From: Prevotella sp.
GTDB taxonomy: Bacteria > Bacteroidota > Bacteroidia > Bacteroidales > Bacteroidaceae
Direction: 5' to 3'
Length of the DNA: 64,000 nucleotides
Assembly: GCA_017623655.1 (NCBI GenBank)
Contig: JAGAON010000004.1
Span: forward strand, 1-64,000
Shown in pieces: positions 58,527 through 64,000 of this stretch (positions are counted from its first letter, which is position 1; the number at the start of each line of letters is the position of its first letter). The notes under the pieces were generated by a model. The model saw only the letters and a list, made by a program, of their open reading frames with translations, was not told where the DNA came from and searched no databases. A program made the position numbers and the translations under genes.

Positions 58527-58669
58527 TAGCGGAATCTAATTCGTTTTCTATTAGGAGTTTGGAGCGTTGCCTCATGCAGAGTGATGGATGAAGCATGACT
58601 ATGTATTTGAACGCATGGACACGCCGCTCCGCTATGTTTATTTATTTACTCATTAACACCAAAAGAATC

Positions 58670-59599
58670 ATGAAAAAGAAATTTATGTTTAAGTTCCTTT
58701 CGATTGCCGCCGTGGCTGTGGCTTTGACAGTTACTTCATGCAGCAGCGATGATGATCCTACACCACCGCCAACGGTCAATGGCTACACTTCAAGTACCGA
58801 TGTGCCGGACGGTTATAAGATAGGTTTCAAGAACAGCACTACCGGCAATGCCTACTTCGTGGCGGAGGAAAACGGCGAGATAACAAAGGTAGGCTTCGTC
58901 TTGACACCGGTGGCTGTGAGAAGTACCAGCGGCAATGTCAACGGCGTGGCGCTGTTCCAAGCGGGACAGATAAGCAGTGTCACTATTAAGGACGTGACAT
59001 ACAGCTTTGCCGTGAAGGACGGAAAAGTGGACGTGAAGGTTGTAAGCAACGGCAGCGTTGAGACGTTCTCCGGCATAGCCGAAGCCTCTCTTCTTGGAGA
59101 CGCGGCAAACAATGCGGCTACGTTTGAGGCCAAGCTGGATGCCGTGTTTGCGAAGATAGCAAAGGCCACGGCCATTATCGCTCAGGCAAACGAGAAGGTT
59201 ACCGACGCGTCTTTGAAGGCGGAAGTGGATGGCATAGCCGACTCTGTGAAGAAACTGGACAATGACGCCAAGGCTCTTGCGGACAATGGCACGGCTTCCA
59301 GCCTTGCTAACAATGCTCCAAGCAATCCTTTGGGAACGGACTCATCAGGCATAGCTGCGGCTGACTCTACGGCAAACAGCAACATAGGCAATGGCGGTGG
59401 ATGGGAAATAGACTCTCCGTCTGACTCTACCGGCGTAAAAGATCCGGAAATACCAGAACTTCCCGGTGACTCTACCGGCGGCAACATCCCTGACATCCCG
59501 TTTGAGCCCGGCGACTCTACCGGCGGTAATACTCCTGACATCCCGTTTGAACCGGGAGACACTACGAGCAAGGCAGGTGTCAAGTTTTTCCTGAAATAA
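58670..59599 (+). CDS. Lipoprotein with Asp/Pro/Thr-rich tandem repeats
   Basis: 309 residues from the start MKKKFMFKFLSIAAVAVALTV (lipobox VTSC); upstream in-frame codons from 58595 are leader. The middle (~60-165) is beta-rich, and ~165-235 is helical with Ala/Asp/Lys heptads. The tail has tandem units such as PGDSTGGNIPDIPFE (two and a half copies, ending PGDTTSKAGVKFFLK). No known family. The repeats suggest a surface spacer or stalk. A terminator follows. Confidence 0.8.
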   Translation: MKKKFMFKFLSIAAVAVALTVTSCSSDDDPTPPPTVNGYTSSTDVPDGYKIGFKNSTTGNAYFVAEENGEITKVGFVLTPVAVRSTSGNVNGVALFQAGQISSVTIKDVTYSFAVKDGKVDVKVVSNGSVETFSGIAEASLLGDAANNAATFEAKLDAVFAKIAKATAIIAQANEKVTDASLKAEVDGIADSVKKLDNDAKALADNGTASSLANNAPSNPLGTDSSGIAAADSTANSNIGNGGGWEIDSPSDSTGVKDPEIPELPGDSTGGNIPDIPFEPGDSTGGNTPDIPFEPGDTTSKAGVKFFLK

Positions 59600-60830: not shown

Positions 60831-60861
60831 TTTGCAAGTATAAATATTTTTTATACCTTTG
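60831..60861 (+). promoter_or_regulatory. Promoter upstream of the CXXX-peptide operon
   Basis: TTTG (60831-60834), 19-nt spacer, TACCTTTG (60854-60861): an exact Bacteroidetes promoter. Predicted start ~60867, 525 nt before the first precursor gene. Confidence 0.75.
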
Positions 60862-60866
60862 CACCG

Positions 60867-61311
60867 ACTTCCGTTAGTTGTAAGTCTGTCATGTTCAGTC
60901 AGAAGAGTCTGACAACCAAGGGACATGACATGACTGCGACACCACGCCGGGATGCCGTGCCGGCAAGGCGGACACTTCGTCATGGCGGGCGGCATAGGAT
61001 GGGAGGAGGTCACTATATATAGGAAGGCGTTTACAATGCGCTTTGTTCTTGACGCTGGGAAACTTCGCAAACTTCTTGATACAGTCATGGACACAGCAAC
61101 GGTAGATGCTCATGGGGTGTTTTATAGTCTTCCTGCCTCCATCTTTCATGCATTATTGTATATGTATATATGATATGTATGTGGATGGGTGTATAGGGAT
61201 ATTATATAAATACATCGGCGTGGGTTTCGCGTTGCTCGTTCAACTGTATCGGGCAATGCGAAGGCCTCTCAGCGTGGAACGGGCAACAGGTACGATCTCC
61301 ACGCTCTTTTT
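60867..61311 (+). ncRNA. Structured leader or small RNA ending in an intrinsic terminator
   Basis: Between the promoter above and the first precursor lie clear stems: TGTCATGT (60887-60894) with ACATGACA (60923-60930) enclosing GTCAGA (60898-60903) / TCTGAC (60908-60913); TCGCGTTGCTCG (61227-61238) with CGGGCAATGCGA (61250-61261, 12 pairs with G-U); and AGCGTGGA (61271-61278) with TCCACGCT (61298-61305) followed by CTTTTT, an intrinsic terminator. A 73-codon ORF inside (60952-61173) has no gene-like features. It is either an attenuator/riboregulator of the peptide operon or a separate ncRNA. Confidence 0.55.
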
Positions 61312-61391
61312 ATGTTAGTTCCATTGCGTTTTTTAATTATCTTTTGCCGACGCTTGGAGGTCGATAGGCATTATTAATCTTCAATGTTATT

Positions 61392-61718
61392 ATGGAGAAA
61401 AAGAAGCAAAACGAAGAACTGCAATCAAGAAGGGAATTCTTCAAGAAGGCTGTGAAAGGGGCGTTGCCTATCTTGGGTGCTGTCGTATTGACGGGGAATC
61501 CTATGCTTGCGAAAGCTGTGGAAGAGAGTCCTATGGGATGCAGTTACGGATGTTCGTATGGTTGCTCTGGTTCTTGTTATTCTCGTTGCACAGGCACTTG
61601 CTCAGGAGGTTGTAAAGGTGGTTGTGGCGGCGCATGCTCTTATAGTTGCCAAAACACCTGTAAAGGTAGCTGCCAAGGAAGGTGCTCTTATGGCTGTTCA
61701 AGTATGAGTTCATATTGA
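61392..61718 (+). CDS. CXXX-repeat RiPP precursor peptide 1
   Basis: 108 residues. N-terminal ~45: leader with SRREFFKKAVKGALPILGAVVL, a twin-arginine (Tat)-like signal (SRRxFF, hydrophobic stretch, AKA near residue 41). Core ~50-102: 14 cysteines at positions 50, 54, 58 ... 102, every fourth residue without exception, separated by Gly/Ser/Tyr/Lys/Arg/Thr. This matches CXXX-repeat peptide substrates of radical SAM maturases. The expected product has Cys-linked modifications (thioether or similar); the exact chemistry is not shown by sequence. It lies 80 nt after the terminator. Confidence 0.9.
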   Translation: MEKKKQNEELQSRREFFKKAVKGALPILGAVVLTGNPMLAKAVEESPMGCSYGCSYGCSGSCYSRCTGTCSGGCKGGCGGACSYSCQNTCKGSCQGRCSYGCSSMSSY

Positions 61719-61745
61719 AATATGGGTCTTAAATAATAAATAACT

Positions 61746-61961
61746 ATGAAAATCTATTGTAGTAAAGATTTCAATAAGGGAGACTTTGTTGAGATAAAAA
61801 CCAAAGATGGAATATATAAAGGGACGGTTAGTGGATATGTGTGTAAAACACTTGATGATGATTTATGCAAAAATGCTATAGGCATTGTTTTAGGTGTGAA
61901 TACACAAATAACCTTTAAGGATATAATACATGCAGCAATAATTAAACAAGATGAAGAATGA
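61746..61961 (+). CDS. Small protein in the CXXX-peptide operon, unknown
   Basis: 71 residues, 27 nt after precursor 1. Beta-rich with KGDFVEIKTKDGIYKGTVSGYV, like a small SH3-type barrel, and two Cys (VCKTLDDDLCKNA). No family recognised. Its place between the precursors and ahead of the maturases suggests a leader-binding or accessory role. AT-rich compared with the chromosome average here. Stop overlaps the next start by 11 nt. Confidence 0.75.
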   Translation: MKIYCSKDFNKGDFVEIKTKDGIYKGTVSGYVCKTLDDDLCKNAIGIVLGVNTQITFKDIIHAAIIKQDEE

Positions 61962-62205
61962 TATCGAATGTTTCTTGCTGGAACATTTCACTATTCATGC
62001 AGATGAGATACAGAATAGAGATAATATAATATGTACACATGCAGGATTTAGCAGAAAAGGATTTGCACAACTTTATGATGTTTTAGGAGAGAATTTCTTT
62101 GATTATATTAAAGGGGTTACAGTATGGCAAGATTTAGAAGAAGCGTCAGTAGAACTCTCTCAAAAAGCGTGTAAAAAACTTTGCGATATTCTTTACGATA
62201 AGTAG
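61951..62205 (+). CDS. Second small protein in the CXXX-peptide operon, unknown
   Basis: 84 residues, mostly helical with a central CTHAGFSRKGFAQLYDVLGENFFDYIKGV segment and a C-terminal Cys pair-like CKKLCDILYDK. No known family. The 11-nt overlap with the previous gene shows coupling. It may be an accessory to the maturases; function unproven. Confidence 0.72.
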   Translation: MKNDIECFLLEHFTIHADEIQNRDNIICTHAGFSRKGFAQLYDVLGENFFDYIKGVTVWQDLEEASVELSQKACKKLCDILYDK

Positions 62206-62228
62206 TATAAATATAACAATTAATGATT

Positions 62229-62645
62229 ATGGAAGAACCATTAATAAATAGAAGGAAATTCTTTGCCAAAGCATCAAAGAAAATTTTGCCAATACTTGGA
62301 GTCGTTTTGACCGGACCATCTATGTTGGTCGGGTGTTCAAAAGATGAAGATACAATAAAAGTTGGATGTGAGGGTTGTATGGGTGCCTGTAGGGGTAACT
62401 GCACACAAGCGTGTGCTAACGATTGTTCTGCACAGTGTGCTGACAATTGTTATGAATCGTGTCGCTACAGGTGTGGTGGTTGTGCTTCTAGTTGCACAAC
62501 AGAATGTAATGGAGTGTGTATTAATGATTGTCTTGGCTGTGAAAGTGAATGCACGAAGTCATGTTCTGGTACTTGTACGAATGGATGTGACTATCTGTGT
62601 GGCTCTACTTGTAAGTCAAAATGTGTGCAGATGGTAAGGTTTTAG
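62229..62645 (+). CDS. CXXX-repeat RiPP precursor peptide 2
   Basis: 138 residues from MEEPLINRRKFFAKA (an in-frame ATG at 62223 adds Met-Ile). The leader has NRRKFFAKASKKILPILGVVL, nearly the same as precursor 1, but ends LVGC at residue 36, a lipobox, suggesting a lipidated or anchored product. Core: 23 Cys from residue 47 to 132, spaced by 4 except three 3-residue steps (47-50, 82-85, 101-104), which split it into blocks. Acidic and Asn/Thr-rich between cysteines, unlike precursor 1. Confidence 0.9.
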   Translation: MEEPLINRRKFFAKASKKILPILGVVLTGPSMLVGCSKDEDTIKVGCEGCMGACRGNCTQACANDCSAQCADNCYESCRYRCGGCASSCTTECNGVCINDCLGCESECTKSCSGTCTNGCDYLCGSTCKSKCVQMVRF

Positions 62646-62657
62646 TTGTTCTTTAAA

Positions 62658-63875
62658 ATGAGCGATATGGTTGCGAATAAAATTTGGAAAAATGGTATGG
62701 CCAAGGATATCACGTTCATCGTCACCAAAGACTGTCAGCTTGCCTGCAAGTACTGTTATCTTGTCGGCAAGAATGAAAAGGAGCGTATGTCATGGGACGT
62801 TGCCAAGCGGGCGATAGACTATATACTTGACCGCGAGAAAGAATTTACAGAGGAATCTGTTGTTTGGGACTTCATTGGTGGAGAACCTTTTCTCGAAATA
62901 GACTTGATAGACAAGATATGTGATTATCTGAAAACGGAAATGTATAGGAGGAACCATCATTGGTTTGAGTCTTACCGTTTCTCTTTTTCCACAAATGGCA
63001 TAAACTATCATACGGACAAGGTACAGAATTTCATCAAGAAGAATCTGAATCATTTGTCTATCGGCATAACCATTGACGGTACAAGGGAGAAACATGACCT
63101 TAACCGCATTTGGAAAGGCGAGGGGCCGGAGAGAGGCTCGTATGACAGTGTAGTCCGTAATATTCCTTTATGGTTGAGCCAATTTCCTCAGGCAGCAACA
63201 AAAGTTACGATAAGCAGTGCTGACATTCCTTATATAAAGGAGAGCGTGCTGCATTTGTATTCGCTCGGCATACATGAGGTGAATATCAACTGTGTGTTTG
63301 AAGACGTGTGGCAGGATGGAGATGACAGACTGTTTGAGGAACAGCTGATGCTGTTGGCTGATGCCATTATAGATGGCGAGTATTACAAGGATTATGCCTG
63401 TTCTTTCTTTACCGAACACATGGGCAAACCGATGGATTGCAAACTGGAAAATAATAACTGGTGCGGTGCAGGCAAGATGCTCGCCATTGATGCCGCCGGC
63501 AATTTCTATCCATGCACACGTTTTGCGCAATACTCTTTGCGTGACAAGAAGGCGTGGATTATCGGAAATATCAATGATGGTATAGATAAAAACAAGTTGC
63601 GTCCTTTCCTTACTCTTGACCGTTGCACACAGTCTGCACAGGAGTGTATAGACTGTGAGGTGGCCAGCGGTTGTGCGTGGTGTCAGGGAGAAAACTATGA
63701 CGCGGCGGACACTCCCACCATATTCCAGCGCTCTACGGCTATATGCAAGATGCACAAGGCGCGTGTGCGTGCCAATAACTATTACTGGAACAAGTTGTTC
63801 CGTAAGTTGGAATTGGAGGGCAGGCGTGAAGAATATGAGAGAAACAAATTGAAGTCTGACAATGTAGTGTGCTGA
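62658..63875 (+). CDS. Radical SAM/SPASM peptide maturase, CXXX-repeat family
   Basis: 405 residues from the ATG at 62658; the open frame begins 12 nt earlier with TTG. Radical SAM cluster CQLACKYCYL (CxxxCxxC) near residue 25, IGGEPFLEIDL, and a SPASM region with WCGAGKMLAIDAAGNFYPCTRF, CTQSAQECIDCEVASGCAWCQGENYD and CKMHK. This is the maturase type paired with CXXX-repeat peptides. It likely installs crosslinks on precursors 1 and 2. GC content rises to chromosomal levels here. Confidence 0.93.
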   Translation: MSDMVANKIWKNGMAKDITFIVTKDCQLACKYCYLVGKNEKERMSWDVAKRAIDYILDREKEFTEESVVWDFIGGEPFLEIDLIDKICDYLKTEMYRRNHHWFESYRFSFSTNGINYHTDKVQNFIKKNLNHLSIGITIDGTREKHDLNRIWKGEGPERGSYDSVVRNIPLWLSQFPQAATKVTISSADIPYIKESVLHLYSLGIHEVNINCVFEDVWQDGDDRLFEEQLMLLADAIIDGEYYKDYACSFFTEHMGKPMDCKLENNNWCGAGKMLAIDAAGNFYPCTRFAQYSLRDKKAWIIGNINDGIDKNKLRPFLTLDRCTQSAQECIDCEVASGCAWCQGENYDAADTPTIFQRSTAICKMHKARVRANNYYWNKLFRKLELEGRREEYERNKLKSDNVVC

Positions 63876-63879
63876 GATT

Positions 63880-64000
63880 ATGATACAATACCTTATTATA
63901 TTATTGGATGATGCGTCTGTTTCGTTTTGCCATTATAAAAATGATGGCAGGCAAGGCGTCCGCAATCTGATGTCAACGGAAACGCTGAAGGCCGGCATAT
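63880..64000 (+). CDS. CXXX-repeat peptide maturase, N-terminal part (window edge)
   Basis: Partial: MIQYLIILLDDASVSFCHYKNDGRQ and NLMSTETLKAGI, the N-terminus of the second maturase that accompanies the radical SAM enzyme in CXXX-repeat clusters. It begins 4 nt after the radical SAM stop and continues beyond 64000. Confidence 0.8.
   Translation, partial: MIQYLIILLDDASVSFCHYKNDGRQGVRNLMSTETLKAGI

What the first reader, a model, noticed from the sequence alone, without database searches (positions are those of the whole stretch)
60831..64000. CXXX-repeat RiPP operon with two Tat-signal precursors, radical SAM maturase and structured leader
Gene order seen: precursor 1, two small unknown proteins, precursor 2, radical SAM/SPASM maturase, start of a second maturase. 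Precursor 1 has 14 Cys at perfect 4-residue spacing; precursor 2 has 23 with three phase shifts. The radical SAM/CXXX family pairing is known by name from genome surveys; the mature product and its use are, to my knowledge, not described. The operon is cut by the window edge, so transport or immunity genes may follow.
Basis: partly seen in the sequence, partly recalled or inferred. Interest (0 to 1): 0.92.

Follow-up and report, generated by a model that had tools for sequence, protein, structure and literature searches.

The report
Cysteine-peptide operon with private Tat exporter
A Bacteroidales-type genome carries an operon that encodes proteins with a cysteine at every fourth residue, a radical enzyme that probably modifies them, and its own copy of the Tat machine, which normally moves folded proteins out of cells; this pairing appears to be undescribed, and the chemistry is still to be tested.

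Summary
Precursor 1 has 14 Cys at exact 4-residue spacing; precursor 2 has 23 repeat Cys with three 3-residue steps, plus one Cys in a lipobox. The maturase is TIGR04115 (647 bits, cut-off 350). The contig runs 2.5 kb past the window and completes the operon: second maturase (TIGR04119), TIGR04116 protein, TatA, TatC.

TatAC is the main new point. Of 63 related loci with at least 5 kb downstream, 48 carry TatA and TatC after the cassette; 15 do not. 51 of 58 operon TatCs form one clade and 7 a second, apart from 39 other TatCs. 146 of 156 precursor ORFs carry a twin-arginine motif. Of five related systems without it, four have an ABC exporter, against 0 of 80 loci of this type. Precursor 2 is a predicted Tat lipoprotein with a Bacteroidota surface-export signal.

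The structured leader is real: a covarying, terminator-ended RNA with no Rfam match, upstream in 59 of 80 loci, and also before other genes (11 matches in this genome).

Most likely: precursors are crosslinked in the cytoplasm, then exported folded by a dedicated Tat, one soluble and one surface-anchored. Crosslinks, export route and role are inferred. New variant of a known kind.

The parts
60831..60861 (+). Bacteroidota-type promoter (consensus recalled): TTTG 60831-60834, 19 bases, TACCTTTG 60854-60861
   Evidence: coordinates checked. A TAnnTTTG box lies 183-383 nt upstream of the leader element in 50 of 52 aligned copies, 10.7 (max 20) in shuffled sequence
60870..61391 (+). 5' leader of the operon, about 520 nt (start inferred from the promoter)
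   Evidence: homologous leaders precede the first precursor in other CXXX loci
61208..61317 (+). Conserved leader RNA element (model R1): P1 61217-61224 x 61298-61305, PC 61232-61241 x 61277-61286, local terminator-like hairpin 61272-61278 x 61298-61304 followed by a T-rich run
   Evidence: R1 98 bits; covariation; coordinates; no Rfam family
61356..61362 (+). Segment after the T-run that can pair with the terminator 3' arm (P4, GGAGGTC)
   Evidence: at least 7 of 8 pairs in 41 of 52 copies; mean 19.7 (max 29) when arms are swapped between copies, mean 4.1 (max 10) when the segment is shuffled
61392..61718 (+). Precursor 1, 108 aa: Tat signal (SRREFF), signal-peptidase-I type, 14 Cys every fourth residue
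   Evidence: TIGR04117 42.8 bits, below cut-off 50
61746..61961 (+). Small protein, 71 aa, function unknown
   Evidence: no homolog in the 80 loci; only sub-cut-off chance-level matches in NCBIfam and Pfam, none in PADLOC, one weak PHROG of unknown function (E 0.0027)
61951..62205 (+). Small protein, 84 aa, function unknown; overlaps the previous gene
   Evidence: 0 of 99 other relatives; no homolog in the 80 loci
62223..62645 (+). Precursor 2, 140 aa: Tat signal (RRKFF), lipobox LVG-C38 followed by SKDED (surface lipoprotein export signal), 23 repeat Cys
   Evidence: signal rule from passages of PMC5080379
62646..63875 (+). Radical SAM peptide maturase, CXXX-repeat target family, 409 aa (TTG start; an ATG lies at 62661)
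   Evidence: TIGR04115 647.5 bits, cut-off 350; CX3CX2C present in 80 of 80 relatives
63880..64000 (+). Start of the second maturase (315 aa, SPASM-type Cys, no CX3CX2C), which runs to contig base 64827. Beyond the window, in contig C9 numbering that continues the window's: TIGR04116 protein 64821-65099 (92 aa), TatA 65106-65348 (80 aa), TatC 65338-66117 (about 259 aa, overlapping tatA), all on the + strand
   Evidence: TIGR04119 246.2 bits (cut-off 150), TIGR04116 100 (50), TIGR01411 63.4 (53.9), TIGR00945 166.9 (132.7), PF00902 204.7; invariant Cys; CX3CX2C in the first 120 aa in 0 of 79 related ORFs; TatC tree

Best explanation
The operon makes cysteine-ladder proteins that are modified in the cytoplasm and then exported already shaped. 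Shown by sequence: two precursors with twin-arginine leaders; a radical SAM/SPASM maturase (TIGR04115), a SPASM-type partner without the radical SAM motif (TIGR04119) and an accessory protein (TIGR04116); and a TatA-TatC pair of a TatC lineage that travels with the cassette. Inferred: the maturase pair recognises the leader (conserved SRRxFFK...LP core) and installs crosslinks, most likely thioethers from the repeated Cys; the same leader then docks with the dedicated TatC, because a crosslinked chain should not thread through Sec; signal peptidase I frees product 1 in the periplasm; product 2 is lipidated at C38, and its SKDED signal sends it to the cell surface. Expression passes through a structured, terminator-ended leader RNA that probably works as an attenuator. 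The product's role is unknown. A surface-displayed structural, metal-handling or competitive protein seems likelier than a small diffusible bacteriocin, because this operon has no ABC exporter, protease or recognisable immunity gene.
For: Cassette: of 80 related loci 79 have the second maturase, 77 the TIGR04116-like protein, 79 a CXXX precursor. TatA and TatC follow within 6 kb in 48 of 63 loci with at least 5 kb downstream; TatC is seen in 9 of 17 shorter ones. TatC lineage: 51 of 58 operon rows in one clade (97/90), 7 in a second; three rows labelled housekeeping inside these clades are the operon genes themselves (identical); the other 39 lie outside. In this genome operon and housekeeping TatC are 44% identical over 251 aa. 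Of 34 genomes with operon TatC, 27 have two or more TatC rows and 7 only the operon copy; of 15 genomes whose locus lacks TatAC, 14 have a TatC elsewhere. Leaders: 146 of 156 precursor ORFs have RR-x-hydrophobic-hydrophobic in the first 80 aa against 178 of 3077 other ORFs; strict RRxFF 136 of 156 against 5 of 3077; among 137 aligned leaders L+12 87% and P+13 93%. Export swap: of five related systems whose precursor lacks the twin-arginine motif four carry an ABC exporter, against 0 of 80 loci of this type by one ABC query. Maturase kinship: next best family is PapB (3.8e-58), whose product is Cys-X3-Asp/Glu thioethers (PMC9413430 abstract); only solved structure matched is 5wgg/5why. Surface signal: 24 of 30 lipobox candidates have two or more acidic residues at +2..+7, in line with the published signal.
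Against: No modified product was seen in any paper I could search, so the crosslinks are inference. 15 of 63 well-covered loci lack TatAC, so the private exporter is not essential; in one of those genomes no TatC was found. Operon TatC is not one clade: as labelled it needs 5 changes, and a single clade appears in 0% of bootstrap trees (three rows were mislabelled). The 80 loci are the closest 80 of 284, include near-copies, and 3 of them show no twin-arginine precursor because precursors are cut or absent. Both precursors fall below the TIGR04117 cut-off. The lipobox and acidic signal were found by pattern rules without a shuffle control. The ABC count rests on one query for the 80 loci but on annotation for the Anaerococcus plasmid. 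Structures of the TIGR04116 and TIGR04119 proteins could not be predicted, so leader recognition is untested. A test that TatAC presence goes with precursor type was weak (p = 0.03 with a faulty rule) and is not used.
Confidence: 0.72

Rival explanations
1. Bufferin-like metal handling: the Cys-rich product, modified or not, is exported to buffer a thiophilic metal in the periplasm or on the surface.
For: Cys-rich modified precursors with a signal peptide in place of a normal leader are known for bufferins, which sequester copper in the periplasm (PMC12452194 passages). Tat export would allow a metal-loaded protein to cross.
Against: Beyond the cassette no gene family is shared by more than 13 of the loci; I did not search for metal genes by name. 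If all Cys are in thioethers few thiols remain to bind metal.
Confidence: 0.25
2. Antagonism: the products are bacteriocins or contact toxins, the surface lipoprotein form acting on neighbours.
For: Many radical SAM peptides are antimicrobial (recalled); precursors are numerous and variable, eight in locus L043.
Against: This operon has no recognisable immunity gene, protease or ABC exporter; none of 80 related loci shows the ABC exporter; PADLOC found nothing for five operon proteins. The two small proteins of this window have no relatives in the loci and could be immunity proteins, which I cannot exclude.
Confidence: 0.2
3. The TatAC pair is a general second Tat system that merely sits at the end of the operon and serves other cargo.
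For: 15 of 63 loci do without it, and the Tat-signal precursors there must use another Tat.
Against: The TatC lineage stays with the cassette across several Bacteroidales families and starts 2.6-4.8 kb after the maturase start in the loci that have it; the extra TatC of G033 turned out to lie in a contig-edge CXXX cassette.
Confidence: 0.12
4. The precursors are unmodified disulfide or metal proteins and the maturase acts on something else.
For: No product has been characterised, as far as I could search.
Against: Precursor and second maturase each accompany the TIGR04115 gene in 79 of 80 loci, and NCBIfam names the enzyme for CXXX-repeat targets.
Confidence: 0.05
5. The leader element is only the terminator of an upstream transcript.
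For: It ends in a hairpin and T-run.
Against: A TAnnTTTG box lies 183-383 nt upstream in 50 of 52 copies (10.7 in shuffles) and none lies in the 130 nt downstream in 52 copies (2.3 in shuffles); the element covaries and 63 of 65 matches in CXXX loci lie on the operon strand or, for the window's own copy, the gene strand (64 of 65 listed as +).
Confidence: 0.1

Closest known systems
CXXX-repeat radical SAM peptide systems (TIGR04114-TIGR04119, NCBIfam)
   Same: Maturase, second maturase and accessory protein all score above their curated cut-offs.
   Different: Precursors score below the TIGR04117 cut-off; the model names seen here say nothing of Tat signals or Tat genes.
Ranthipeptide maturase PapB, CcpM and SCIFF maturase (5wgg; the name CteB is recalled)
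   Same: Next best enzyme families by score (PapB 3.8e-58, CcpM 1.2e-39, SCIFF maturase 6.1e-34; 5wgg 2.6e-23); the repeat spacing matches PapB's Cys-X3-Asp/Glu (abstract).
   Different: Here the residue four places on is another Cys, and PapB scores under its own cut-off (197 against 340).
Bufferins and oxazolins
   Same: Cys-rich precursors whose leader is an export signal peptide, possibly part of enzyme recognition (passages).
   Different: They are modified by MNIO enzymes and carry Sec signals; here radical SAM and Tat.
Non-Tat CXXX loci (G096, pAPRE01 of Anaerococcus prevotii, L263, L264)
   Same: Same maturase pair, fused in G096 and pAPRE01; repeat-Cys precursor (short, four Cys, in pAPRE01).
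   Different: No twin-arginine motif; ABC exporter, and in G096 an S8 protease, instead of Tat genes.
UpxY/LoaP-type antitermination leaders
   Same: Leader with a hairpin and a terminator before accessory operons (LoaP: passages of PMC12691694); 6 of 74 ORFs downstream of the element are UpxY-like.
   Different: No link of this RNA to a factor is shown; Saba 2024 on UpxY is not held, so overlap with it could not be checked.

Membership tests
CXXX-repeat radical SAM peptide system | TIGR04115 maturase above curated cut-off | tested here: met
   647.5 bits, cut-off 350
CXXX-repeat radical SAM peptide system | TIGR04119 second maturase and TIGR04116 protein above cut-off | tested here: met
   246.2 against 150 and 100 against 50
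CXXX-repeat radical SAM peptide system | Precursor above TIGR04117 or TIGR04114 cut-off | tested here: not met
   42.8 and 40.5 against 50; 14.8 against 20. The repeat itself is present
Tat substrates | Twin-arginine motif, hydrophobic stretch, signal peptidase site | tested here: met
   AxA-type site in 114 of 117 non-lipo precursors. By pattern only, no signal-peptide program
Tat substrates | Export depends on TatC | not testable with these tools
   needs a deletion
Bacteroidota surface lipoproteins (LES) | Lipobox Cys followed by polar and acidic residues at +2..+6 | tested here: met
   precursor 2: LVGC-SKDED, fits C-X-K-(D/E)2 of PMC5080379
Ranthipeptides / sactipeptides | Thioether from Cys to a carbon of another residue | not testable with these tools
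   needs mass spectrometry or NMR
Bufferins | MNIO enzyme and Sec signal peptide | tested here: not met
   radical SAM enzyme and Tat motif in this operon instead
Known structured RNA (Rfam 15) | Match to any of 4227 families over the element | tested here: not met
   the one overlapping match (SR6, 19.6 bits against gathering 55) is chance-level

The most novel reading that the evidence does not exclude
The maturase joins each repeat Cys to the one four residues on (the PapB spacing with Cys as acceptor), giving a continuous sulfur-linked ladder: 13 links and about 26 Da lost in precursor 1. The rigid ladder can leave only through Tat, so a private TatAC evolved with it, and the lipidated version is displayed on the cell surface: a new class of covalently stiffened surface protein, switched on through an unregistered attenuator RNA.
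Probability: 0.2. Interest if true: 0.9.

Novelty: new variant of a known kind. Interest (0 to 1): 0.72.

Why it matters
Modified peptides usually leave through ABC exporters (recalled), and even a Sec signal is called highly unusual for them (PMC12452194 passage). A modification system that owns a Tat translocase would explain how a heavily crosslinked protein crosses the membrane, would give a natural Tat specialised for one cargo, and points to an undescribed class of Cys-ladder proteins, some probably on the surface, in Bacteroidales. It makes the unknown CXXX product directly testable, since cargo, enzyme and exporter sit in one short operon and a natural ABC-type counterpart exists for comparison.

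Tried and rejected
Small proteins: no family. Link between lipoprotein precursors and absence of TatAC: 5 of 10 lipoprotein-only loci lack it against 10 of 60 others, p = 0.03, but the rule misfiled rows (for example L008 as lipoprotein, L105 as not), so rejected. The Rfam matches ceN36-1 and SR6 were far below gathering scores and taken as chance. The alternative leader fold P2+PB+PT is weaker than P1+PC: 91.4% paired, 6 pairs with double changes against 4.5 in shuffles (85 of 500 reach it), though its 21 double-change cells exceed 9.1 in all 500. P1 and PC were picked from the same alignment on which they were first counted. That the element is a switch is inference from mutually exclusive helices.

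Considered and rejected: that the flavodoxin gene and the lipoprotein gene to the left belong to the operon, since a promoter lies between; a plasmid origin (one plasmid relative at E 1e-30, 51% identical).

Literature on absence: the listings showed no paper on CXXX peptides with Tat; two searches listed only 20 of 31 and 20 of 167 papers, and one paper that held all four terms (PMC12654047, on Leptospirillum) was not opened. PMC10352776, PMC5682303, PMC10906245 and PMC12452194 were seen by word search only. The family's first description (J Bacteriol 2011, recalled) and Saba 2024 are not held.


Full report
What was checked. The window is contig C9, bases 1-64000, of a 60% complete, 1.93 Mb draft genome. 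The contig ends at 66531, so the operon could be read to its end. Gene order: precursor 1, two small overlapping genes, precursor 2, TIGR04115 maturase, TIGR04119 second maturase, TIGR04116 protein, TatA, TatC. The three modification proteins and both Tat genes score above a curated cut-off. The two precursors score just under the cut-off of TIGR04117 and are 42% identical to each other over 101 aa.

Precursors. Precursor 1 has 14 Cys, all four apart; precursor 2 has 23 repeat Cys with three steps of three. Random placement never came close in 20,000 trials each. In 156 precursor ORFs from this locus, one relative (G023) and the 80 loci, 2459 Cys-to-Cys steps are 4 and 150 are 3; the residue two after Cys is Gly in 36%, and the residue before the next Cys is Ser, Thr or Gly in 70%. 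146 of 156 have RR followed by x and two hydrophobic residues within 80 aa, against 178 of 3077 other mechanically listed ORFs; 136 have the strict RRxFF against 5 of 3077. Of the ten without, L091 and L102 begin at a contig edge. 77 of 80 loci have at least one twin-arginine precursor; L091, L102 and L103 do not. The leader is conserved at places a Tat signal does not obviously need: among 137 aligned leaders L at +12 is 87% and P at +13 is 93%; F at +3 (97%) and +4 (98%) were partly fixed by the search pattern. The precursors of two non-Tat loci (L263, L264) keep a similar stretch ending in LPG without twin arginine, which suggests that a maturase-recognition part is older than the Tat part; this is my reading of two sequences.

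Two fates. 114 of 117 twin-arginine precursors without a lipobox have an AxA-type site before the repeats. Thirty have a lipobox candidate ahead of the repeats, and 24 of these have two or more acidic residues at +2..+7, in line with the Bacteroidota lipoprotein export signal (C-X-K-(D/E)2 in Capnocytophaga, SDDDD in B. fragilis; PMC5080379 passages). The other six are probably false. No shuffle control was run on this. Precursor 1 here is the first kind, precursor 2 (LVG-C-SKDED) the second.

The exporter. Of 80 related loci (the best 80 of 284 found), 63 have at least 5 kb after the maturase; 48 of these have TatA and TatC, and 15 have neither; of the 17 shorter ones 9 show TatC. The tree of 58 operon and 42 other TatC rows puts 51 operon rows in one clade (support 97/90) and 7, from Paludibacteraceae, Lentimicrobiaceae and one unassigned Bacteroidales, in a second. 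Three rows labelled housekeeping fall inside because the search had returned the operon gene itself, identical letter for letter; the other 39 lie outside both. The operon rows are thus not one clade: as labelled they need 5 changes against 32 in shuffles, and no bootstrap tree unites them. Among 100 relatives, this genome included, TatC occurs in 81 and TIGR04115 above cut-off in 7. Of those 7, G000, G023, G053 and G098 have TatAC in the cassette, G034 has only TatA there, G019 neither, and G096 is of the ABC type. In 49 further genomes (50 loci), 27 of 34 with operon TatC have two or more TatC rows (in one, G130, both lie in CXXX loci), 7 have only the operon copy, and 14 of 15 without it have a TatC elsewhere, two of them with two.

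The natural comparison. Five related systems have a precursor without twin arginine: G096, the Anaerococcus prevotii plasmid pAPRE01, L263, L264 and L265. Four of them carry an ABC exporter next to the maturase, G096 also an S8 protease; L265 has neither, and no second maturase was detected there. In the 80 loci no ORF with more than 100 bits to the G096 exporter lies on the same strand within 4.5 kb; two weaker ones lie more than 5 kb away. Two loci with a Tat-like RRRF leader but no TatAC (L261, L262) show no ABC exporter in about 10 kb. In G096 and pAPRE01 the two maturases are fused (54%/31% and 50%/27% identity to the two window proteins), which supports that they work as one complex. So the type of leader goes with the type of exporter, on small numbers for the non-Tat side.

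The maturases. TIGR04115 relatives keep CX3CX2C in 80 of 80; none of 79 second-maturase ORFs has it in the first 120 aa, but they have invariant Cys in a SPASM-like pattern. The next best families for the first are PapB, CcpM and the SCIFF maturase. PapB makes Cys-X3-Asp/Glu thioethers and tolerates other spacings (PMC9413430 abstract). Thioether formation here is inference from this kinship.

The leader RNA. The leader (60870-61391) has a promoter of the Bacteroidota type and a 110-nt element towards its end. With E up to 0.01, the element is found on the operon strand within 8 kb upstream of the maturase in 59 of 80 loci (four of these weak, 25-36 bits, and one cut by a contig end); in 35 of them the first precursor starts 16-361 nt after it; 17 loci with at least 600 nt before the first precursor lack it; 5 other hits lie in the 1.37 Mb searched. 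On 52 copies, helices P1 and PC are paired in 99.0% of cells, with 77 double-change cells against 22.6 in shuffles (0 of 500), and at most 61% paired when slid; the helices had been picked on that alignment. A second set of 52 matches gives 97.9% and 92 against 23.9; six of its rows come from places in the first set, three are weak antisense matches, and the alignment was fitted to the model and so leans towards it. A local terminator-like hairpin, and a segment after the T-run that pairs with the same arm (41 of 52, mean 19.7 and at most 29 for swapped arms), compete with P1 and PC. Rfam has no such family. The element is not private to CXXX operons: model R1 finds 74 places in 20 of 40 genomes, 11 of them in this genome, three of these under 40 bits, and 3 to 11 in each of 6 genomes that carry CXXX loci. 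Of 74 ORFs read downstream in two samples, CXXX precursors among them, 6 are UpxY-like NusG paralogs (three confirmed by Pfam); others include a LytTR, an AbiH, a GtrA and a C5-methylase gene and secreted proteins and lipoproteins judged by eye. I read the element as an attenuator used by accessory genes, perhaps read by an UpxY-type factor; nothing here shows the factor.

What remains inferred. The crosslinks, the dependence of export on this TatAC, the surface position of product 2, the attenuation, and the role of the products. Against my reading stand the 15 of 63 loci without TatAC, the selection of close relatives, the sub-cut-off precursors, and the lack of any structural test of the accessory proteins. 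The TatC lineage and the exporter swap are the parts that I consider strongest.

Noticed in passing
G000 C6:19554-19666, C3:3948-4060, C1:48511-48622, C8:380898-381012, C7:57389-57499 and others: Ten further matches of the leader RNA in this genome, and 74 places in 20 of 40 genomes in all, mostly before unrelated accessory genes where looked at: a candidate new RNA family of Bacteroidales, not in Rfam 15.
   Followed up: partly
L172, L186, L188, L210, L229, L237: The RNA element directly precedes UpxY-like NusG paralogs, which suggests autoregulated antitermination.
   Followed up: partly
L254:4576-4785 and L250: A non-Tat CXXX system with fused maturase, ABC exporter and S8 protease in the same order, resembling the classical RiPP layout.
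   Followed up: yes
L043: One locus with eight CXXX precursor ORFs before and after the maturase.
   Followed up: no
L037, L046, L059, L061, L069, L072, L075, L097, L109: A secreted protein that looks SH3-like (my reading, no family search) recurs in nine CXXX loci, and another large secreted family in thirteen.
   Followed up: no
window 58595-59599: Lipoprotein with a CSSDDD surface signal and Pro/Asp-rich repeats upstream of the operon, weakly like an Mfa1 fimbrial subunit (23.8 bits, cut-off 130).
   Followed up: no
contig C9 about 66220-66531: A TACCTTTG promoter-like box and a leader-like stretch after tatC, cut by the contig end.
   Followed up: no
L041, L042, L068: Records titled Clostridia, Clostridium or Lachnospiraceae carry this type of locus; L041 and L042 nest among Bacteroidota TatC, so binning error is likely.
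   Followed up: no
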